A stretch of DNA of 51,688 nt from Microcaldota archaeon (GCA_021797495.1 JAJZZO010000012.1:1-51688); one strand, 5' to 3'; shown: positions 3,247-21,079, numbered from the stretch's first letter. Notes: a model not told the origin generated them from the letters alone. Numbers and translations: made by a program.

Positions 3247-4437
3247 TCAGCTATCGCGTAAGCTTCGTTTTTCGATTTTCTTGGACTTGCCATTGCGGAG
3301 CATGCCCATTATCTCATCTTTTTTATCTTTGGGGATTAAAGAAAGCGGAAACTTATGCGCCCTGAATAAAAGTTCTGCGTCGGAGCTGTTGTTTATGCTG
3401 GGAAGGTTTTCTGATACGAACCCAAGCATTTCGTCGCGGGTGCGCCAATCTATGAGCTCACGGATTATTCTTGGAATATTTTTAGATATTGGCACCTCTA
3501 CGTCTGAATCCGTGGAAAGTTTCAATAATTTTGCTGTGACGTTCTTTAACGCTTCTTGAACATGAGGAGAGGTTCTGTATGCTCCATAAAGCCTCTTTAC
3601 TGCTTCTATGCTGTCCACTTCAACGACAGAGTTATATTCATCTAAATATTCATCCTGAGTATTGTAATAAAGCCATGGAGCCGCCTCACACATTGCGTCC
3701 TTCTCCAGCATATGGTGTATTATTGGCGCGACAAGCTTGGAGGCATCTTCATGTGACAGCACAGGTTCGGCACGCTTGAACGCGTTGATGTAGTGCTGCG
3801 TGACCCAGTCCTCGATGTGCAACGGACCTTTGTAGGCACTACCGTCCTTTATGCTTGTCAAATCAAGATAGTCGTCAAAGTATTTTGAAAATGATATGAG
3901 CAATGTGCGATAGTTTTGCGACAGCGGTTGTTCATAGTAAGCCATCTCCCAGAATGCGTTTGTCGTGATCTTTTTCAGCATTTGGCTGTCCATCGCACGT
4001 TCGAGTTTTCCCTCTTCGTACATGTGGAAAAGCGTAAAATATGGATGTTTGTATCCAGGAGCTGCATAACCCAATTTTATAAATTGTTCCGACCTACTCG
4101 CAGTTTCTATTACAAGCTTCTCTATTTCTAGCATTTTTTCTTCGCCTAAAAGCGTTTCCAGTTCGGTTTCCCTGTCAAGCACGTGCCAGAAGCTACCTGT
4201 TTTGACAAGGTCACGGTACATCGCAAATTCTGGATGTTGTATGGCTTTGTCGCTGAATGATATTATATCTGCTTTCTCCTCAGTACCGAAAGCCTTACCC
4301 CAAGAAAGGACGCGTTTTTTCTCATCTGCATAGAACGGATCTGTTTCGAGCTCTTCCCAGATATTGTCGACCAGAGCCGCAAATTCCGACTTGTATCTTG
4401 AGATTGTCTTTTCGTAGTTTAAATCGGTAAGGTGCAT
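3247..4437 (-). CDS. Hypothetical alpha-helical protein
   Basis: A 396-residue soluble protein rich in Glu, Lys, Tyr and Leu, with no signal peptide or membrane segment, that I do not recognise. It looks almost wholly helical. Aromatic-rich segments in the middle (PGYKHPYFTLFHMYEEG, NAFWEMAYYEQPLSQNY) suggest a folded helical bundle, and the last 20 residues are basic. I prefer the ATG at 4437 to the TTG at 4464, because a TATA-like stretch lies at about 4470-4482 and the ATG has the expected spacing. It is a single-gene unit. Confidence 0.6.
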   Translation of the reverse strand: MHLTDLNYEKTISRYKSEFAALVDNIWEELETDPFYADEKKRVLSWGKAFGTEEKADIISFSDKAIQHPEFAMYRDLVKTGSFWHVLDRETELETLLGEEKMLEIEKLVIETASRSEQFIKLGYAAPGYKHPYFTLFHMYEEGKLERAMDSQMLKKITTNAFWEMAYYEQPLSQNYRTLLISFSKYFDDYLDLTSIKDGSAYKGPLHIEDWVTQHYINAFKRAEPVLSHEDASKLVAPIIHHMLEKDAMCEAAPWLYYNTQDEYLDEYNSVVEVDSIEAVKRLYGAYRTSPHVQEALKNVTAKLLKLSTDSDVEVPISKNIPRIIRELIDWRTRDEMLGFVSENLPSINNSSDAELLFRAHKFPLSLIPKDKKDEIMGMLRNGKSKKIEKRSLRDS

Positions 4438-4547
4438 GCACTTCTCACTCTTGATAGGAATCAATTCGGGATATATTTATGGATTGCGTTTGAAGATTGC
4501 CTTGGTATTATCCCGAAATAAGTTCCTCTCAGTAAAACGGATATCTG

Positions 4548-8629: not shown

Positions 8630-8811
8630 CCTGATGCGTAAAAAATTACAAATACAATGGTATTGCGGGAAAGTTTTATCGGAGAAAAGTTTTTGGATAA
8701 AAGTATAAAACACGTAGAATAAAAAAACAGAAACTTCAAAATGTAACTTTACATAGGGTAAGTGCAAAAGTTATAAAGGTTTAACCATGTATTGGTTTAT
8801 GTGTTTTGTCA

Positions 8812-10314
8812 ATGCCCAAAAATCCGCAGAATGCCATAGCAGATTCCAGCAACCCCGGTAAGTCTGATGTTACCGAACCCCAGAGCGACAGGCTGGGGCT
8901 TTCAAGCATAAAACAGCTTATGCAATCATTTTACATAAACGAGGTGCCATCATACGGCAACAACTTCTTCTTCACAATTGGAGTTTACCTACTTGAGCTT
9001 TTCGGCATACTGGCGGTGACTGGGATTGTCATGCTTGTATTCGGCCCGTATTGGTGGAATCTCACATTGGTTGGTACGTTCTTCAGGAGCGTGCACCTTT
9101 GGGCTGCGGAAGCCTTCGTGACGCTGATATTCGTGCACCTCTTAGTGCAATTCGCCACATCCTCATTCAAAAAGAAGAAGCTTGTCTGGGTCCTTGGGGC
9201 CGCGATGCTTTTCCTCGTGATGCTTGAATACGCCTTCGGCATAGGCGTGCAGGGCGGCTTCGTGGCGCAATGGAACGCCAAAGCGGGGGCAGACCTCTGG
9301 AACGGCATGGGGCTTGGTTATTGGGTTAACCCGCTGAACATGGCTGCGGTACTCGGATGGCACATCGCGATAGTGCCATTGCTTCTTGTAATCCTTATGT
9401 TCGCACACTACATGCTGGTCAAGCAAAAGGGGCTAAGCAAGCCTTACAGAAATGACATACCTTACAGCATGGTTCCGGCCAACCACAAAACCATGTACAA
9501 ACGCATGGCGTATGTGCTTGTCGTGGTGCTTCTTTTTGCAGTTATATTGCGGTCTCCTTACATAGCCCCGATATCGATACAGCACATAGCAAACACCACA
9601 CCAGACATAATGGCATTGACGCTGATGCAGGAGTTCAACTTCACCTCTGCGACAGCCACCTATTTTGACACCATAGACCCTTATACTTTCAGCACCAGGA
9701 ATGTCTATGTAAGCGTGCCTTATAGCAGTTACGTAGGCATCACAGGTTCAAGGAATTACGAGGCAGAGCTCCTAAACGAAAGCCCGAGCGCCCAAAACGC
9801 TTCGCTTGGTTTTGCCGCAAGATATTTCGACTCGAACGGCTCTATATCAAAAGGGATTAACTCTTCGAACCCGGCCATAGCTATGTTCTCGCAGCTTACA
9901 CGCATGGCTCAGACAGGCTTATACGGGGACCAGCTCAAGGGCGAGGTGCAGAATCCGCTCAACGAAACGTATGAGATAAGGTTCATCACGGATTCCGGAG
10001 CTTTGGATACTTACGCAACGCAGTACGACCTTAGAACTTCCCAGTGGGGCATGCTGAAGGCGGGAAACCTGTGGTGGCAGATAGGAAGCTATTGGACCGC
10101 ACCGTACAACTGGATGGAGATTGTTACTGACGGCATACCGTGGTGGGGCGATTTGGAAAATGGCCTCGTGGCTCTTGCCGCTTTTGCTGTGCTGATATTC
10201 TTCCCGTTCATACCTGGAATAAGGGACATACCGGACAAGCTGAAGCTTTACAAGATATTCTGGAACAGGCACACAATACCTGAGATGAAGAAGGGAATAA
10301 AGAAAAAGCCATGA
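8812..10314 (+). CDS. Cytochrome b (b6-like) with large external insertion
   Basis: A membrane cytochrome of about 500 residues. The two haem-ligand pairs are visible: RSVHLWAAEAFVTLIFVHLL (His pair 14 apart) and GWHIAIVPLLLVILMFAHYM (His pair 15 apart). The longer second spacing is that of cytochrome b6 rather than mitochondrial b. After the fourth-fifth helix, a non-membrane segment of about 180 residues (roughly 255-435), rich in Asn, Ser and Thr, is likely outside the cell. A final helix (LVALAAFAVLIFFPFIPG) and basic tail follow. It would carry electrons from quinol, but no Rieske, copper protein or oxidase subunit lies beside it. I start at ATG 8812, six bases after an in-frame TTG. Confidence 0.85.
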   Translation: MPKNPQNAIADSSNPGKSDVTEPQSDRLGLSSIKQLMQSFYINEVPSYGNNFFFTIGVYLLELFGILAVTGIVMLVFGPYWWNLTLVGTFFRSVHLWAAEAFVTLIFVHLLVQFATSSFKKKKLVWVLGAAMLFLVMLEYAFGIGVQGGFVAQWNAKAGADLWNGMGLGYWVNPLNMAAVLGWHIAIVPLLLVILMFAHYMLVKQKGLSKPYRNDIPYSMVPANHKTMYKRMAYVLVVVLLFAVILRSPYIAPISIQHIANTTPDIMALTLMQEFNFTSATATYFDTIDPYTFSTRNVYVSVPYSSYVGITGSRNYEAELLNESPSAQNASLGFAARYFDSNGSISKGINSSNPAIAMFSQLTRMAQTGLYGDQLKGEVQNPLNETYEIRFITDSGALDTYATQYDLRTSQWGMLKAGNLWWQIGSYWTAPYNWMEIVTDGIPWWGDLENGLVALAAFAVLIFFPFIPGIRDIPDKLKLYKIFWNRHTIPEMKKGIKKKP

Positions 10315-11058: not shown

Positions 11059-11881
11059 CCCTCATTACGAACAGGTCGTCAAGGGTTATGGGCTTTATTA
11101 TGTAGCCGTTCTTGGCGTACCTTTCGGTATCTTTCAGCTTTATGTATTCTATTTTTGTATTCCCTATCGTATGTGTGGCTTTAGCGTTGGCGTTGCTTGT
11201 TTCTGCCCTTGCCATGCCCTTGAACTTGCTGAGCAGGGAGCTCACAGTCCCTGTGGCCAACACCTTGCCGGAATCCACCATGACAACTTCGTCTGCAAGC
11301 TCTGTCGCCTCTTCCATGTAATGCGTTGTAAGTATTATGTTGCCCCTAAGCATCTTTATTGCCGACCATACCTCTATCCTGGAAAGCGGGTCCAAGCCTG
11401 TGGTCGGTTCATCCAGGAATATAGTATCGGCATTCGCCGCCAGCGCCATGGCCACGAACACCTTGCGCTTCATGCCTCCGCTCAGCATGTCGGTGGGCGT
11501 ATCCCTGGCATGCCAGAGCTCTAGCGCTTTCAGGGCTTTGCCAGCTTCGATGGTTGAATCGTTAAGCGACATGCCCCTGGCGCAGAGGTACATCTTTAGG
11601 TGCTCCATCGGGGTAAGATAGCCTATCGGGCTTGCCTCTTGCGGTATGCTCACGATATTCTTCCTTATCTCCTTTGCATCCCTGATGTTGTCCAGGCCGT
11701 TTATCGTCACGACCCCTGAACTTTGAAGCAGTTGCGTGGAAAGTATGCGCATCATCGTTGTTTTTCCGGCCCCGTTCCTGCCTATCACTGCGGTTAGCCT
11801 TTTTGAGAATGTAGCGCTTATGCCCTTAAGCGCGTAGTTCCCATCTCCATAGCGCTTTTCCAGCTTTTTAATCTCTATCAT
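11039..11881 (-). CDS. ABC transporter ATP-binding subunit
   Basis: A 280-residue ATPase with Walker A GRNGAGKTT (about residue 34), the ABC signature LSGGMKRKV, Walker B TIFLDEPTTGLDP and a switch His in ILTTHYMEEA. The GMKRK signature and TGLDP form are typical of the DrrA/multidrug and NatA-like group that pairs with ABC-2 permeases. About 80 extra C-terminal residues follow the nucleotide-binding domain and may dock to the permease. It is the first gene of a two-gene operon. Confidence 0.9.
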   Translation of the reverse strand: MIEIKKLEKRYGDGNYALKGISATFSKRLTAVIGRNGAGKTTMMRILSTQLLQSSGVVTINGLDNIRDAKEIRKNIVSIPQEASPIGYLTPMEHLKMYLCARGMSLNDSTIEAGKALKALELWHARDTPTDMLSGGMKRKVFVAMALAANADTIFLDEPTTGLDPLSRIEVWSAIKMLRGNIILTTHYMEEATELADEVVMVDSGKVLATGTVSSLLSKFKGMARAETSNANAKATHTIGNTKIEYIKLKDTERYAKNGYIIKPITLDDLFVMRGVNIES

Positions 11882-12011
11882 ACAATCGTGCAGGTAATTG
11901 TCGTTATTTATCCGTGCGAATAAACACGCATATGTTATTTTTCGTCATTGCTTATAAACTTTGATATTGTTCCTATATATTTTCCGTTAGTGGAAAAGCT
12001 TAGAGTATTCT

Positions 12012-12067
12012 AAATCACATAAAGAGAAAGGATTAAACACACTTGGGATTCAATATGCGTGTGATTT
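12012..12067. promoter_or_regulatory. Inverted repeat spanning the FKBP leader
   Basis: AAATCACA (12012-12019) and TGTGATTT (12060-12067) are perfect 8-bp arms 40 bases apart. The right arm ends one base before the ATG of the FKBP gene. If both arms are transcribed, the start region could be folded into a stem that limits translation; alternatively they bind a regulator. A second small hairpin, TTTTCC/GGAAAA, lies at 11980-11997. Confidence 0.3.
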
Positions 12068-12068
12068 G

Positions 12069-12512
12069 ATGAGCAGTGCAAACGAACAAGTAGTAGAAAA
12101 AGACGACGCGATAGAGGTCTTTTATACGGGAACACTGGACGACGGTACCGTTTTTGACTCGAACGTTGGCGGAGCCCCGTTAAAATTCACAGTTGGCTCG
12201 GGGGAATTGATAAAGGGATTTGATGAGGGCGTAGTCGGCATGAAACTCAACGAAACCAAAAAAGTGGCGATAAAGGCTGAAGACGCTTATGGAAACAAGA
12301 GGGACGAGCTGATTGTAGAGGTGCCAAAAGACAACTTCGGCGATGCCGAAATAAAGGAAGGCATGGGGGTAAGGACCGAGGACGGCCACGAGGGCACCGT
12401 GATAAGCGTAGGGGAAAAGAGCGTCAAGGTGGACTTCAACCCGCAATTAGCCGGCAAAGACCTAAACTTCGAAATAAAGGTTGCGAGCATAAAAAAGGGT
12501 GCTGGACGATGA
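12069..12512 (+). CDS. FKBP-type peptidyl-prolyl cis-trans isomerase
   Basis: A 147-residue protein of the short archaeal FKBP/SlyD type. The core begins VEVFYTGTLDDGTVFDSN, followed by FTVGSGELIKGFDEGVVGMKLNE with the family aromatic and Gly residues. The insert-in-flap region starts at EDAYGNKRDELIVEVPKD, and the C-terminal part (HEGTVISVGEKSVKVDFNPQLAGKDLNFEIKV) closes the barrel. It folds proline-containing proteins in the cytoplasm. The His-rich tail of bacterial SlyD is absent. I use the ATG at 12069. The gene stops one base from a convergent membrane-protein gene. Confidence 0.92.
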   Translation: MSSANEQVVEKDDAIEVFYTGTLDDGTVFDSNVGGAPLKFTVGSGELIKGFDEGVVGMKLNETKKVAIKAEDAYGNKRDELIVEVPKDNFGDAEIKEGMGVRTEDGHEGTVISVGEKSVKVDFNPQLAGKDLNFEIKVASIKKGAGR

Positions 12513-15885: not shown

Positions 15886-16791
15886 ATGGATGTTGTCAGG
15901 GTCGGTACTAGGGGCAGTCTGCTTTCGTTAAAACAAACATCCATAGTGACAAAAAAGCTTGAAGCAACAAATTCAGGGTTAAAATGCGAGCTTGTGCGGA
16001 TAAAGACGTTGAACGAGAAGATAGACCGTTTTGCGGTAAAGACTACGGAAAAGGACATATACACAAAGGAGATAGACGAGGCGCTGATGAACGGAGACAT
16101 AGACATTGCAGTGCACAGCCTGAAGGACCTGAAGAACGAGCTCCCAAATGGCATTGTGATTGCGGCAGTGCCTGAAAGAGCTAGCCCTTTTGACGTGTTG
16201 GTAAAGGGAAAAGGTTATGCTGGCAAAACCCATAAAGTAATAGGCACCAGCAGCATGAGGAGGAAAGTCCAGATAGCAAACATGATAAAAGACGTAGAGG
16301 TTAAAGAACTGCACGGCAACGTGGATTCCAGGCTAAAAGCTCTTGACGACGGCTCTGTAGACGCAATAGTTCTCGCGGCTGCAGGGCTGGAACGCATGGG
16401 TTACAGTCGCGATGTAGAAGTGCTTCGTCCAGATGTGATTGTACCAGCAATAGGGCAGGGTGCCTTGGCTGTAACTTCCAGATTAAACGATAGCGAGATG
16501 AGGAACGTCCTTTCAGGCATAAACGACAACGAAGCGGAGCTTGAGGTTACTGCGGAGAGGGCTTTCGGCAGGGTTTTCGGGATAGGTTGCGATGTACCCA
16601 TAGGGGCGCTTGCTGAGATAAAGGACGGCACCATGAACGTTATAGGTTTTCTTTCCGATATAAACGGGAAAAAACAGCTAAAGGCTGAGATAAAAGGCGA
16701 TAAAGATAAAGCCAGTGACTTGGGCAGGGATCTTGCGGCAAAAATAATCAGCATTGGCGGGGATGATATAGTTGCGAAGGGCGGGCAATAA
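15886..16791 (+). CDS. hemC: Hydroxymethylbilane synthase (porphobilinogen deaminase)
   Basis: A 301-residue enzyme joining four porphobilinogens into hydroxymethylbilane. Family motifs are complete: VGTRGSLLSLKQT at the start, DIAVHSLKDLKNELP with the catalytic Asp region, GTSSMRRKVQ, LHGNVDSRLKAL, and VPAIGQGALAV. The Cys that holds the dipyrromethane cofactor is present in GIGCDVPIGA. It lies between trpS (7 bases) and hemD (20-base overlap) in one operon. Length is usual for the family. Confidence 0.95.
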   Translation: MDVVRVGTRGSLLSLKQTSIVTKKLEATNSGLKCELVRIKTLNEKIDRFAVKTTEKDIYTKEIDEALMNGDIDIAVHSLKDLKNELPNGIVIAAVPERASPFDVLVKGKGYAGKTHKVIGTSSMRRKVQIANMIKDVEVKELHGNVDSRLKALDDGSVDAIVLAAAGLERMGYSRDVEVLRPDVIVPAIGQGALAVTSRLNDSEMRNVLSGINDNEAELEVTAERAFGRVFGIGCDVPIGALAEIKDGTMNVIGFLSDINGKKQLKAEIKGDKDKASDLGRDLAAKIISIGGDDIVAKGGQ

Positions 16792-17476
16792 CATAGCAGT
16801 ATTGTGCTCCGAAGAAGACAAAAACAGCCTGGAATTGCACTTTAAAGGCATTAAGGAAGTTAAATTTTTACCGGCAATAAAATTCAACGATGATTATGAC
16901 GCGATCAGGGAAGCTGTTTCATTAGCCGGATATGCGGAATACATTATTTTCGGCTCTAAGCATTCCGTGCGCCTGTTTATGGAAGAATTAAGAAAGCAAG
17001 GTTTAAAACAGGATTTGATTTCAAAAGCGAAGGTTTTTGCGGCAGGCAAAGCGACAAAAAAGGAACTTGAGGAAAACAAGGTACAAGTATATTACGCACC
17101 ACGTTCCGAAGGCATCTCAGGGATTTTTGAAAAGCTTCAAAGCATGGAACACGGCGCAGTAGTTGAGATATCAAGTTCAACAGGGACCGTTGAAACACCA
17201 AGCGGGTTTATGTACGTCAGGATAAAGGCTTATTCTGCTGTCCGATGCCTGCAAAAATTTAATGCGTCGGATTATGACGCCATAGTATTCCCCAGTACGG
17301 CAGAACTTGATGCGTTTGTGGAATCATCTGACATTTCTATCGATGAAGTGAAAGGAATAAAAGCTGTTTGCATCGGATCTAAGACCTATGCAAAAGCTAA
17401 AATGGTATTCAGTAGGACGGAGCTCTGCAGCGAAAACAGTATAGAACAGGCAATAGCACAGGCAAGAGGTGGATGA
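16772..17476 (+). CDS. hemD: Uroporphyrinogen-III synthase
   Basis: A 234-residue protein with the weakly conserved, two-lobed HemD pattern: a first lobe with the strand YIIFGSKHSVRLFMEEL, where the family has TSxNGV, and a second lobe with YDAIVFPSTAELDAFVE then GIKAVCIGSKTYAKAK. It closes hydroxymethylbilane to uroporphyrinogen III. Its TTG start lies inside hemC and its end overlaps hemE by eight bases, which together with the fold makes the call firm even though HemD proteins diverge strongly. Confidence 0.88.
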   Translation: MRRAGNNIAVLCSEEDKNSLELHFKGIKEVKFLPAIKFNDDYDAIREAVSLAGYAEYIIFGSKHSVRLFMEELRKQGLKQDLISKAKVFAAGKATKKELEENKVQVYYAPRSEGISGIFEKLQSMEHGAVVEISSSTGTVETPSGFMYVRIKAYSAVRCLQKFNASDYDAIVFPSTAELDAFVESSDISIDEVKGIKAVCIGSKTYAKAKMVFSRTELCSENSIEQAIAQARGG

Positions 17477-18515
17477 ATTGGAAGAGAGTTTACTGCTAAG
17501 AGCGTTAAAGGGCAGCGACATAGAGCGGCACCCTGTATGGTTTATGCGCCAAGCCGGAAGATACCTCAACGAATACAGGAAATTGAAGGGCACAAGGGAC
17601 ATATTCGAGGTGCAACATGATCCCGTCACAGCTTCCGATATAACGGTGTTGCCTGTAAAGAAACTCGGAGTTGACGCAGCAGTATTATACTCGGACATCA
17701 TGGTTCCGATAAAGTCGAGGGGATACGAGATAAGGATAGAGGAAAACATAGGCCCTGTCGCAGATAAGCCATTGGATGTGTCTGATACGGAGGCATTGAA
17801 CAGCTTGTCAAAATTCGATTGCGGAAGGGATGCGCCATATGTGCTGGAGAATATAAGATACTCGATTGAAAAGCTTCCGGAAGGAATTCCGTTGATAGGT
17901 TTTTCCGGTGGGCCGTTCACCATGTTCAGCTACCTGATCGAGGGAAGACCTTCAAGGACATTTGAAAAATCCAGGAAGTTTATGGCAGAAAATCCGAAAG
18001 AGTTCAAGCATGCGATGGAAAGCGCGGAAAAGATAATCAAAAACTACCTGAGAGCCCAAATATATGCAGGAGTGGAAGTCGTGCAGCTTTTTGAGAGCTG
18101 GGCAGGATATTTAACGCAACAGGAATACCGCGACTTTGTACTTGAACCGACCAAGCGCATATTTGACGAACTCCCCAGTAAAATACCTAAGATTTATTTC
18201 TCTGCAAGGACCGAAGGCATGATAGACATCTTTTCGGAAACCGGCTGCGATTCGCTTAGCGTTGACTCAAATACCGACATAGCTGCAGCGTACAGGCATT
18301 TTGACGGGAAGCTCTCGATCCAAGGAAATCTCAGTCCTGAGATTGCGCGTGCTGGCGGCAGCATCATGGAAAAAGAGGTAAACGAATTGCTTGACAATGT
18401 TTCAGGAATAAGAAAATTTGTTTTTAACCTCTCTCACGGCGTCTTAAAGGAGACGGATCCGGCCAACCTTGTCAGGATAGTCGACATCGTGAAGGCAAGG
18501 CGCATGCCGCAATGA
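17469..18515 (+). CDS. hemE: Uroporphyrinogen decarboxylase
   Basis: A 348-residue enzyme that removes four acetate carboxyls from uroporphyrinogen III to give coproporphyrinogen III. Diagnostic motifs are PVWFMRQAGRYLNEYR, AAVLYSDIMVPIKSRG with the catalytic Asp, GFSGGPFTMFSYLIEG, and a C-terminal FNLSHGVLKETDP. It starts with GTG inside hemD. It ends one base from the convergent hemH stop, so the two heme transcripts meet end to end. Confidence 0.95.
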   Translation: MDELEESLLLRALKGSDIERHPVWFMRQAGRYLNEYRKLKGTRDIFEVQHDPVTASDITVLPVKKLGVDAAVLYSDIMVPIKSRGYEIRIEENIGPVADKPLDVSDTEALNSLSKFDCGRDAPYVLENIRYSIEKLPEGIPLIGFSGGPFTMFSYLIEGRPSRTFEKSRKFMAENPKEFKHAMESAEKIIKNYLRAQIYAGVEVVQLFESWAGYLTQQEYRDFVLEPTKRIFDELPSKIPKIYFSARTEGMIDIFSETGCDSLSVDSNTDIAAAYRHFDGKLSIQGNLSPEIARAGGSIMEKEVNELLDNVSGIRKFVFNLSHGVLKETDPANLVRIVDIVKARRMPQ

Positions 18516-18516
18516 T

Positions 18517-19419
18517 TCATGCTTCTGGTGGATGTATCGCTTTTGCCGATACGGAATATAGTGCGTTTATTATCCCTTCCGAATCGTTCGGCATTTCGGA
18601 TATTCTGGCTTCGATGCCAAGCTCTTTGCAGAGACTCAACAATTCAATGCCAACATCGTACATAGTTTCAAGATTGTTCGATATGAAGCCTATTGGAATT
18701 ATGCAGAGCCTTTTTATCCCGGCCTTTGATAGCTCTTTTATCTGCCATGCGGCATCTGGTCCGATCCATTTTCCAGGGGCATCGGCTTTGCTCTGGAAGC
18801 ATAATGACCATTTGCACCCGAAGTGCTTCTCCACGGAATTAGCAGTGTTTATCAGCTGCCTTCTGTAGATGCTGAGATCGTCGGCATCGCTAGTTGGCAT
18901 GCTGTGCGCAGTGAAAAGCATCACCCAGCCCTTGTCTATCCCTAATTTTGACACCTTTTCGATCCAGGCCTCTGCAAGACCCTGCTCATCGCACCATGAT
19001 TTTATGAAATGGAGTTTCCCCTTAAATCCTGCCCTTTCCGCTGATTCCGATACCTGGTTGAAATAACTTCCAGTACCAATCGCAGTATAAAAAGGAGCTA
19101 AGGGCAAACATACAAGATTAGATATACCATCGGCTTTTGCCTTGTCGACCGCTTCGTTTATGTAAGGCTTTGAATATTTCATCCCGTAATAAACTTTGGC
19201 ATTTATACCGTTTTTCTTTAATGCTTCCTGCAATTTTTCGGTTTGGCTTCTTGTTATTTCCAGCAACGGCGAACCGCCCTTTATTGCCATATACCTTTTC
19301 TTGAGCTTTTCCAACTGCAACGCAGTCGGCTTTTTGCCCTTAAGTATCTCGGTATAATACCTTTCTATATCGCTTATGCCGTCAGGGGTGCCGTATGCCA
19401 TGAGCAGTATCCCATCCAA
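18517..19419 (-). CDS. hemH: Ferrochelatase, likely coproporphyrin ferrochelatase
   Basis: A 300-residue ferrochelatase without membrane tail. It has ILLMAYGTPDG at the start, RYMAIKGGSPLLEIT, LAPFYTAIGTGSYF, the catalytic-His strand LFTAHSMP, and a QSKADAPGKWIGPD segment matching Gram-positive-type enzymes. With HemQ next door the substrate is most likely coproporphyrin III (CpfC activity). The open frame reaches 19518, inside hemQ. I place the start at TTG 19419, because AGGTGGG (19423-19429) precedes it directly after the hemQ stop and the product then begins at the conserved motif. Confidence 0.9.
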   Translation of the reverse strand: MDGILLMAYGTPDGISDIERYYTEILKGKKPTALQLEKLKKRYMAIKGGSPLLEITRSQTEKLQEALKKNGINAKVYYGMKYSKPYINEAVDKAKADGISNLVCLPLAPFYTAIGTGSYFNQVSESAERAGFKGKLHFIKSWCDEQGLAEAWIEKVSKLGIDKGWVMLFTAHSMPTSDADDLSIYRRQLINTANSVEKHFGCKWSLCFQSKADAPGKWIGPDAAWQIKELSKAGIKRLCIIPIGFISNNLETMYDVGIELLSLCKELGIEARISEMPNDSEGIINALYSVSAKAIHPPEA

Positions 19420-19427
19420 AATCCCAC

Positions 19428-20069
19428 CTAAATTCTTATCCCAGTCAGTATCGGGGTTTCTCTTGTTATCCATTTGCGCGCTGTCGCAGATCTTAATTCC
19501 TCTGTCACTTTCACCCATTCGTATAAGCTGGGCATTTCGTATATTACCACGAATTCATGATCCGCTATTCCGAATGACTTTGTAGTGTATGATATAATGC
19601 CATTGTTATGCCTGCTGTTTATTGCCATGCTGACATGGTCGGCCACGATCCTTTTTGATTCCTCCTTGTCTAATAGATACCAATCCGGCGTTTTGCTCAT
19701 AGGGTAGGCAACGAAATAATCGCCGCCCTGTTGCCTCTTTTTAGCTGCTTCGGAATAAACTGACAATAAGCCCTGCGAAAAATGCGCAAGTCCTGAAAGC
19801 GATTCTTCGAGCATCAGCTTTGCCTCTAACAGCTCTTTCGGGTCTTTGCACATTAGCCAGAAAATCAGGTCAGAATCTCCGCGAAGCGAGCCATAGGCTT
19901 CAGCCTTGAGCGCTTTTGAAGATTCGCGCCATACTTTGAGCTTTGACTTTACTGATGTTAATCTTGCAATCCTTGACGGTTCGTCGAATTCCCACCAATG
20001 CTCGGTATAGTAAAAAGAGAGCACTTCCGAGATATATTCTTCAGGCATTTTATCGCACACAGTTGGCAT
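19428..20069 (-). CDS. hemQ: HemQ/coproheme decarboxylase (chlorite-dismutase family)
   Basis: A 213-residue protein with the HemQ core: FVAYPMSKTPDWYLLDKEE, in which the Tyr of YPM is the reactive radical Tyr of the family; RIVADHVSMA, whose His matches the proximal haem ligand; then FGIADHEFVVIYEM and LRSATARKWITRETPILTG. The actinobacterial-style form lacks the long N-terminal part of Firmicutes enzymes. It decarboxylates coproheme to protohaem, the last step of the coproporphyrin-dependent pathway. It precedes hemH by nine bases in an operon. Chlorite dismutase itself is less likely, given the neighbours. Confidence 0.88.
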   Translation of the reverse strand: MPTVCDKMPEEYISEVLSFYYTEHWWEFDEPSRIARLTSVKSKLKVWRESSKALKAEAYGSLRGDSDLIFWLMCKDPKELLEAKLMLEESLSGLAHFSQGLLSVYSEAAKKRQQGGDYFVAYPMSKTPDWYLLDKEESKRIVADHVSMAINSRHNNGIISYTTKSFGIADHEFVVIYEMPSLYEWVKVTEELRSATARKWITRETPILTGIRI

Positions 20070-20165
20070 TTGCTGCCCGTCCTGTTCTGCATTTCAAGTA
20101 AAAGTATAAATATTATTGAAATTAACTTTTATACATATCTCCATAAAAAAACCGTCGTGAATATA

Positions 20166-20705
20166 ATGGCATTAAGAAACGCTGATAAAAAGGGGCAAGT
20201 GGAGTATATAACTCCGACAATAGGGAGAATGAATTTCCCTGACGTTAAACACTACTTGACAAAGGAGGTTGTGCCGCAGGCGATAATGTCATACGCAGAA
20301 GAATGCATCGCTGATTCCGATAATGAAAGGCCCACTGGAAGCCTCTTGGATCGCGTATGTGTATTGGCACAAAAGAGTATAGATAACGGTTTATCGATAC
20401 TTACTGATGCAATATCGGAATACAAAAAAAAGCATGGGTATTCTGATTATTGCGAATCCGTTGAAAACACGCAAAGATTATGGGAAAACTCGAAATTGAA
20501 ACTGTTAGATGAGGCATATTTCGAGGAGATAATAGTTGACAGTTTAAAAAACATTGAAAATGGAAGCGCGGATTTCGAACTCTCATCGCTTTCCGAAGAA
20601 ACCGCAAAAGTTGTAAAAAGAGTAATGGAAGAGATAAAATTCGAGCTTAACAGAACACATTACTTGCCCAAAACCGACCAGTTGAGCAGGCTTAAGAGGG
20701 GTTAG
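20166..20705 (+). CDS. Hypothetical protein
   Basis: A 179-residue soluble helical protein I do not recognise. The open frame extends to 19998, but that part overlaps hemQ. ATG 20166 lies 30 bases after a TATA-like TTTTATACAT (20127-20136), fitting a nearly leaderless start. The second half is rich in acidic residues and likely a long helix. It is followed after two bases by another small gene, so the two form an operon. Confidence 0.6.
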   Translation: MALRNADKKGQVEYITPTIGRMNFPDVKHYLTKEVVPQAIMSYAEECIADSDNERPTGSLLDRVCVLAQKSIDNGLSILTDAISEYKKKHGYSDYCESVENTQRLWENSKLKLLDEAYFEEIIVDSLKNIENGSADFELSSLSEETAKVVKRVMEEIKFELNRTHYLPKTDQLSRLKRG

Positions 20706-20707
20706 CT

Positions 20708-21079
20708 TTGACAAAACGCAAGAAACCTGCAGAGATGCGCAATAATAATCAGAAGACATTCGAAGATTTTTCTTTACTCAGGGTTAACGATTTTAGAGCA
20801 GTACTCAAAAAAATCGACAGTGAAATAGAAAACATAAAGCCTGATGCTACAATAACCGAGATTAGGCGCTTAAGCAGAGAACTGGAAAAGGACCTTGGAA
20901 AGTTATCAGTGAATGTTTCTGCGATAAAAGAACATTACGGATTGCTTGAACTTTTAAGGGAAGTACAGAAAAAAAGGCCTAACGACGCAATAATAAATAG
21001 CGCAGTAGAGGATTTGGAACGAAGCTATGCGGAAAAGCTCGTAGAGATCGCAAAAAACCAGTTGTCGAAATATGTCTGA
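20708..21079 (+). CDS. Hypothetical coiled-coil protein
   Basis: A 123-residue, highly charged, all-helical protein starting with TTG. Heptad-like stretches (LLRVNDFRAVLKKIDSEIE, ELEKDLGKLSVNVSAIKEHY) suggest a coiled coil. The first 20 residues are basic (TKRKKPAEMRNNNQK), which could contact nucleic acid. It is the second gene of a pair with the hypothetical gene upstream; the two products may form a complex. Its stop abuts the convergent stop of the next gene. Confidence 0.55.
   Translation: MTKRKKPAEMRNNNQKTFEDFSLLRVNDFRAVLKKIDSEIENIKPDATITEIRRLSRELEKDLGKLSVNVSAIKEHYGLLELLREVQKKRPNDAIINSAVEDLERSYAEKLVEIAKNQLSKYV

What the first reader, a model, noticed from the sequence alone, without database searches (positions are those of the whole stretch)
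15886..20069. Coproporphyrin-dependent heme genes in an archaeon
hemC, hemD and hemE on one strand meet hemQ and hemH on the other. HemQ decarboxylates coproheme, so the set implies the route coproporphyrinogen III, coproporphyrin III, coproheme, haem. That route is the standard one in Gram-positive bacteria, while most archaea are thought to make haem from sirohaem. No ahb-type genes are in the window. The coproporphyrinogen oxidase (HemY/CgoX) is also absent here.
Basis: partly seen in the sequence, partly recalled or inferred. Interest (0 to 1): 0.75.

Follow-up and report, generated by a model that had tools for sequence, protein, structure and literature searches.

The report
Haem genes starting at porphobilinogen, Micrarchaeum
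A tiny acid-loving archaeon, from a genus known to live with an archaeal host, carries the late genes for making haem by the coproporphyrin route but none of the first three genes, so it probably takes a half-made building block (porphobilinogen) from its host; related genomes point to an unstudied radical enzyme as an oxygen-free substitute for the last step.

Summary
The five genes are real: hemC, hemD, hemE (+) converge on hemH, hemQ (-). HemQ is a coproheme-decarboxylase-type protein (Y122, M124, K126, W130, H145; model TM 0.86 to Thermoplasma TA0507, about 0.8 to known ChdCs). HemH is the Bacillus copro-ferrochelatase type. The window belongs to Ca. Micrarchaeum (DPANN); the cluster recurs, under purifying selection, in its genus. 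Genome-wide searches change the reading. HemA, HemL, HemB and CgoX are missing from the window genome; hemA and hemB are missing from all 8 genus genomes (one closed). 22 of 26 HemQ-bearing genomes in the phylum lack both. So the pathway starts at porphobilinogen, probably host-fed, and the copro'gen oxidation step has no known enzyme. HemQ is not a recent bacterial gain: it sits in an archaeal clade, whereas five other Micrarchaeota carry a Chloroflexi-like HemQ. No AhbC or HemN was found. Five related genomes have full haem operons (hemE-H-C-D-A-cgoX-TIGR04053-hemL-hemB) without HemQ, which nominates the AhbD-like radical SAM family TIGR04053, also present in the window genome, as an oxygen-independent coproheme decarboxylase. 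HemE plus HemH in archaea was already known from Thermoplasma and Picrophilus, so this is a variant, not a new kind.

The parts
15886..16791 (+). hemC, hydroxymethylbilane synthase (porphobilinogen deaminase)
   Evidence: TIGR00212 282 bits over cut-off 164, Pfam both domains; SLKD motif and GCDVPIG cysteine visible in the translation
16772..17476 (+). hemD, uroporphyrinogen-III synthase (divergent)
   Evidence: Pfam HEM4 72 bits over cut-off 27.5; NCBIfam HemD models hit only below cut-off; conserved position in genus
17469..18515 (+). hemE, uroporphyrinogen decarboxylase
   Evidence: TIGR01464 337 bits over cut-off 303
18517..19518 (-). hemH, ferrochelatase of the Firmicutes coproporphyrin (CpfC) type; real start probably TTG at 19419
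   Evidence: TIGR00109 197 bits; best PDB matches are Bacillus and other copro-ferrochelatases; B. subtilis Y13/H183/E264 correspond to Y42/H205/E284 of the ORF
19428..20069 (-). hemQ, coproheme decarboxylase (ChdC) type
   Evidence: PF06778 116 bits; best PDB TA0507 E 1e-41; invariant Y122, K126, W130, H145; AlphaFold model pLDDT 91, TM 0.86 to 3dtz, about 0.80-0.83 to actinobacterial ChdC
8806..10314 (+). b6-type cytochrome b, a likely consumer of the haem
   Evidence: Pfam Cytochrom_B_N_2 54 bits; related cytochrome b gene lies beside haem clusters in G179, G224, G238 and G151

Best explanation
This is a truncated coproporphyrin-type haem pathway in a host-associated Micrarchaeum. SHOWN: hemC, D, E, H and Q are intact, clustered, conserved in the genus and under purifying selection; hemA, hemL, hemB, cgoX, hemN and ahbC are absent from the genome as held. 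INFERRED: the cell imports porphobilinogen, most likely from a Thermoplasmatales host (Thermoplasma and Picrophilus carry hemA/L/B/C/D plus hemE and hemH). HemC and HemD turn it into uroporphyrinogen III, HemE makes coproporphyrinogen III, this is oxidised to coproporphyrin III, HemH inserts iron to give coproheme, and HemQ decarboxylates it with peroxide to haem b for a cytochrome b encoded 5.6 kb away. The oxidation step has no identified enzyme: it may be spontaneous in air or run by an unknown protein. A second, oxygen-independent terminal enzyme is probably the AhbD-like radical SAM protein TIGR04053 encoded elsewhere in the same genome.
For: Gene identities. HemQ residues and fold. hemB (PF00490) in 9 of 301 phylum genomes and in none of 8 genus members; hemA (PF05201) in 8 of 36 tested and in none of the genus; the only two class III aminotransferases of the window genome score 138 and 46 bits against HemL's cut-off of 527, while a true HemL in G238 scores 602. 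One genus member, A_DKE, is a closed genome grown with a Thermoplasmatales host (PMC8975820). CgoX absent. No AhbC. No HemN_C. Genus-wide synteny. dN/dS 0.04-0.13 for HemQ/H/E/D. Host-type gene set: PMC3004389. TIGR04053: 20 of 22 carriers also have HemQ, HemB or CgoX (Fisher 4e-20; by genus 9 of 10, 3e-8), and complete haem operons without HemQ contain it.
Against: No porphobilinogen transporter was identified, and porphobilinogen supply by the host is unproven. The window assembly is 89% complete, though the same absence in its relatives, one closed, makes an assembly gap unlikely. The copro'gen oxidation step is unexplained. HemQ scores below the curated HemQ model cut-off. AhbA/B, HemF, HemG, HemJ and CgoN were not searched genome-wide. 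The Micrarchaeum host itself was not searched for hemA/L/B.
Confidence: 0.62

Rival explanations
1. The pathway is complete and ordinary: the early genes and an oxidase exist but lie in the unassembled 11% of the genome or are too diverged to detect.
For: The window genome is 89% complete in 20 contigs.
Against: hemA and hemB are missing in all 8 genus genomes, including a single-contig closed genome and one at 95%; the hemB and hemA models find the genes readily elsewhere in the same family and in control genomes.
Confidence: 0.07
2. The main product is haem made through TIGR04053 (AhbD-like radical SAM), and HemQ is a secondary, peroxide-dependent enzyme or haem-handling protein; the membrane protein encoded directly upstream of TIGR04053 (CopD-like, 160-166 aa) stands in for CgoX.
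For: TIGR04053 replaces HemQ in five complete operons. All 8 CgoX genes of the phylum are adjacent to TIGR04053. In 10 genomes without CgoX a CopD-like gene sits next to TIGR04053, and no genome has both CgoX and the CopD-like gene.
Against: G267 (95% complete) keeps the HemQ cluster but lacks TIGR04053, the CopD-like protein and CgoX, so the pair is not needed for the HemQ route. Profile comparison of the CopD-like protein with HemJ was no better than shuffled controls. In Thermus TIGR04053 lies beside a nitrite reductase, so the family may have other tetrapyrrole roles.
Confidence: 0.2
3. The genes serve something other than haem b for the cell itself, for example remodelling of scavenged porphyrins or iron handling; a VIT-family gene lies nearby and the host supplies haem.
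For: Mia14, a related Micrarchaeote with cytochrome bd, has no haem genes and was suggested to take haem from its host (PMC5498576).
Against: HemC and HemD only make sense upstream of a macrocycle; HemD, HemE, HemH and HemQ are under purifying selection and HemC is kept with them; a cytochrome b is encoded nearby.
Confidence: 0.08

Closest known systems
Coproporphyrin-dependent haem pathway of Firmicutes and Actinobacteria (UroD, CgoX, CpfC, ChdC)
   Same: HemE, copro-type HemH and ChdC-type HemQ; no HemN in the genome; the terminal genes cluster
   Different: No HemA, HemL, HemB and no CgoX; HemQ belongs to an archaeal clade, with Actinobacteria-like spacing but Firmicutes-like Met and Lys at the active site
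Haem gene set of Thermoplasma and Picrophilus (Storbeck 2010, PMC3004389)
   Same: hemE and hemH without hemF/N/G/Y, plus (Thermoplasma) a HemQ homologue, TA0507 (3dtz): the same gap at the oxidation step
   Different: Thermoplasma and Picrophilus have hemA/L/B; in the Thermoplasmata loci examined HemQ is not clustered with hemE/hemH
Haloferax PitA (ChdC-ABM fusion, PMC5746218)
   Same: ChdC-type protein in an archaeon; an ABM-domain gene sits beside hemQ in many Micrarchaeota
   Different: Haloferax lacks uroD, cgoX and cpfC and has the Ahb genes; ABM is a separate gene here and was not found beside hemQ in the window genus
AhbD, haem b synthase of the sirohaem pathway
   Same: TIGR04053 of the window genome aligns to AhbD over its full length (272 bits)
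   Different: Below AhbD's cut-off (500); its own family TIGR04053 scores 458 (cut-off 395); no AhbC partner

Membership tests
Coproheme decarboxylase (ChdC/HemQ) | PF06778 fold with proximal His, catalytic Tyr and no distal Arg of chlorite dismutase | tested here: met
   PF06778 116 bits; Y122 and H145 with the 23-residue spacing of C. diphtheriae Y135/H158; M124, K126, W130 present; the distal region reads IISYTTKSFG without Arg by inspection; closest folds are ChdCs ahead of chlorite dismutases
Coproheme decarboxylase (ChdC/HemQ) | Converts coproheme to haem b with H2O2 | not testable with these tools
Coproporphyrin ferrochelatase (CpfC) | Firmicutes-type ferrochelatase with Y13, H183, E264 (B. 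subtilis numbering) | tested here: met
   Y42, H205, E284 of the ORF align to them; best PDB hits are Bacillus and other CpfCs at E 1e-48 to 1e-40, mitochondrial enzymes at 1e-25
Coproporphyrin ferrochelatase (CpfC) | Substrate preference for coproporphyrin III over protoporphyrin IX | not testable with these tools
   Needs an enzyme assay
Complete coproporphyrin-dependent pathway | CgoX (FAD oxidase) converting coproporphyrinogen III to coproporphyrin III | tested here: not met
   No PF01593 match and no TIGR00562 match in the window genome
Complete coproporphyrin-dependent pathway | HemA, HemL, HemB making porphobilinogen | tested here: not met
   Absent in the window genome; hemA and hemB absent in all 8 genus genomes
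Complete coproporphyrin-dependent pathway | CgoN (YtpQ) as alternative oxygen-independent oxidase | not tested
Sirohaem (Ahb) haem pathway | AhbC and AhbD radical SAM enzymes | tested here: not met
   7 radical SAM proteins in the genome; none over the AhbC or AhbD cut-off; one is TIGR04053
Sirohaem (Ahb) haem pathway | AhbA/B sirohaem decarboxylase | not tested
   Not searched genome-wide
Protoporphyrin-dependent pathway | HemN or HemF coproporphyrinogen decarboxylase | tested here: inconclusive
   HemN_C absent in the genome; HemF was not searched
HemJ (for the CopD-like gene at G000:C4) | Detectable homology to HemJ | tested here: not met
   hhalign probability 1.7%, within the shuffled range; no PF03653 hit; Pfam CopD 27.3 bits, below cut-off 32.1

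The most novel reading that the evidence does not exclude
The genus lives on porphobilinogen handed over by its archaeal host and finishes haem itself with two alternative terminal enzymes: HemQ when oxygen or peroxide is present, and the radical SAM family TIGR04053 as the unknown oxygen-independent coproheme decarboxylase of the coproporphyrin pathway.
Probability: 0.35. Interest if true: 0.78.

Novelty: new variant of a known kind. Interest (0 to 1): 0.58.

Why it matters
If true, a reduced symbiotic archaeon does not import finished haem but an early precursor, which would make haem supply a concrete, testable dependence between DPANN archaea and their hosts; a closed, co-cultured member (Ca. 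Micrarchaeum harzensis) exists for the test. A 2024 paper (PMC10965808) still calls the oxygen-independent coproheme decarboxylase of the coproporphyrin pathway unknown in bacteria (a 2020 review, PMC7242693, names AhbD for this step in some organisms). The HemQ-less operons found here put one specific radical SAM family, TIGR04053, in that slot, in genomes that otherwise hold every pathway gene.

Tried and rejected
(1) Bacterial transfer of this HemQ: rejected by the tree; bacterial-type HemQ occurs only in five other Micrarchaeota. (2) HemQ as chlorite dismutase: rejected on residues and fold. (3) The two class III aminotransferases as HemL: rejected on scores. (4) The CopD-like protein as a HemJ relative: I expected it from the sequence pattern, but profile comparison gave no support, and G267 lacks it while keeping the HemQ route. 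(5) A PDB search with the CopD-like profile gave nothing. (7) A search centred on Thermoplasma was not accepted. (8) Literature searches for TIGR04053 and for porphobilinogen cross-feeding found nothing on point. (9) Two papers by Dailey and co-workers that I tried to look up are not held, so whether they already listed TIGR04053 proteins as AhbD could not be checked.

Full report
OBSERVATION. HemC, HemE and HemH pass the curated NCBIfam cut-offs, HemD and HemQ pass the Pfam cut-offs. HemH as an ORF overlaps HemQ by 91 bases, but homology begins at residue 36 and genus-mates start HemH just after HemQ, so the start is probably the TTG at 19419.

IDENTITY OF HEMQ AND HEMH. HemQ's best solved relative is Thermoplasma TA0507 (3dtz, E 1e-41), then Streptomyces and Corynebacterium coproheme decarboxylases. 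Across 17 Micrarchaeota HemQs Y122, K126, W130 and H145 are invariant and they remain so across 24 archaeal and bacterial sequences; Y122 to H145 has the same 23-residue spacing as the catalytic Tyr135 and proximal His158 of the C. diphtheriae enzyme (numbers from my own knowledge). The predicted structure (pLDDT 91) matches 3dtz (TM 0.86) and the coproheme decarboxylases (about 0.80-0.83) before chlorite dismutases. HemH matches B. subtilis-type copro-ferrochelatases and keeps Tyr13, His183 and Glu264 of the B. subtilis enzyme. Substrate use is inferred, not shown.

ORGANISM. The window is contig 14 of a 959 kb, 89% complete assembly. A genome of the same genus is Ca. Micrarchaeum sp. A_DKE, a closed genome, which I take to be the published Ca. 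Micrarchaeum harzensis with its Thermoplasmatales host Ca. Scheffleriplasma hospitalis (PMC8975820); the words heme, haem and porphyrin do not occur in that main text.

MISSING STEPS. PF01593 and the HemY/CgoX model find no oxidase in the window genome. HemB occurs in 9 of 301 phylum genomes and in none of the 8 genus genomes; HemA in 8 of 36 tested and none of the genus; a tblastn query with Micrarchaeota HemA, HemB and CgoX agrees for the HemQ-bearing genomes. The two aminotransferases that touch the HemL model are other class III enzymes. Of 26 HemQ genomes, 22 lack both HemA and HemB. HemN_C is absent and none of the seven radical SAM proteins is AhbC. The simplest reading is a pathway that begins at porphobilinogen. 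Thermoplasma and Picrophilus carry hemA/L/B/C/D, hemE and hemH and likewise no known oxidase (PMC3004389), so a Thermoplasmatales host could supply porphobilinogen; this is inference, and the actual host genome was not searched.

CONSERVATION. The convergent hemCDE/hemHQ cluster recurs in genus-mates, next to the same tryptophanyl-tRNA synthetase and VIT-family genes in several of them. Pairwise dN/dS is 0.07 (HemQ), 0.04 (HemH), 0.08 (HemE) and 0.13 (HemD) (synonymous sites are partly saturated). These are not decaying remnants.

ORIGIN. The HemQ tree puts 21 Micrarchaeota including the window in one clade (SH-aLRT 95) among archaeal HemQs, while five Micrarchaeota group with Chloroflexi. HemH gives a compatible picture. 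A bacterial origin for the window's HemQ is not supported. The tree is a quick one without bootstraps and its deep forks are weak.

A SECOND TERMINAL ENZYME. Five genomes of the same family hold hemE-hemH-hemC-hemD-hemA-cgoX-TIGR04053-hemL-hemB operons and have no HemQ and no HemN (the hemL identity was scored for G238 only). TIGR04053 is a radical SAM/SPASM family close to AhbD. All eight CgoX genes of the phylum are next to TIGR04053; 20 of 22 TIGR04053 carriers have HemQ, HemB or CgoX (Fisher 4e-20; by genus 9 of 10, 3e-8); the counts are not corrected for a tree. In a Geothermarchaeota genome it lies near hemA, hemB, hemL, hemC and hemQ. It is therefore the best candidate for coproheme to haem in those operons, and a likely oxygen-independent alternative to HemQ in the window genome, which encodes one copy (G000:C4:56170-57249). 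An alternative is that it acts earlier as a coproporphyrinogen dehydrogenase feeding a protoporphyrin route; similarity to AhbD and the copro-type HemH argue against this but do not exclude it. A 2020 review already says that AhbD serves this step in some organisms (PMC7242693), and a 2024 paper calls the oxygen-independent enzyme of Gram-positive bacteria unknown (PMC10965808). In Thermus the family lies beside a nitrite reductase, so it may have several tetrapyrrole roles.

THE OXIDATION STEP. In ten genomes without CgoX, TIGR04053 lies next to a gene for a CopD-like membrane protein of about 160-166 residues; CgoX and this protein never occur together. It is tempting as a CgoX substitute, but homology to HemJ was not supported and G267 lacks it while keeping the HemQ cluster. 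Non-enzymatic oxidation, which typically requires oxygen (PMC10965808), is the other option.

VERDICT. It is a new variant of a known kind. Interest lies in the implied precursor dependence and in TIGR04053.

Noticed in passing
L137:904-10799 (G238) and L136, L138, L139, L140: Complete haem operons with CgoX and TIGR04053 but no HemQ in five relatives of the same family.
   Followed up: yes
L146:9159-10762 (G000:C4 about 56158-57761): TIGR04053 radical SAM gene directly downstream of a gene for a conserved 166-residue CopD-like membrane protein; the pair recurs in 10 genomes, none with CgoX.
   Followed up: partly
L042:9482-9781, L050:9361-9657, L051:8848-9141, L138:14497-14784: A small ABM-domain gene sits beside hemQ (in L138, which has no HemQ, beside hemE), recalling the ChdC-ABM fusion PitA of Haloferax; not found beside hemQ in the window genus.
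   Followed up: partly
L042, L045, L050 (G202, G186, G207): Closely similar haem clusters in genomes of two families, while G203, a genus-mate of G202, has a different type: likely transfer of the module between Micrarchaeota.
   Followed up: no
L034-L038 (G196, G115, G197, G118, G194): Chloroflexi-like HemQ clusters in five Micrarchaeota that also lack hemA and hemB: a second module that starts at hemC.
   Followed up: partly
L047:14302-15312, L148:7891-8874, L150:4022-5020: A divergent second HemH paralogue, beside TIGR04053 in G202 and near hemB in G143 and G151.
   Followed up: no
window 19998-20705 and 20708-21079: Two genes without Pfam match, divergent from hemQ and conserved beside it in genus-mates (L053, L055, L056; the first also in L052).
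   Followed up: no
L056 (HemE 11068-12179), L052 (HemC 3568-4441): HemE in G265 and HemC in G266 are split into two reading frames, by assembly error or real frameshift.
   Followed up: no
L275:5309-8568: On a Thermus plasmid TIGR04053 lies between a nitrite reductase gene and a cytochrome c gene, suggesting wider tetrapyrrole roles of the family.
   Followed up: no
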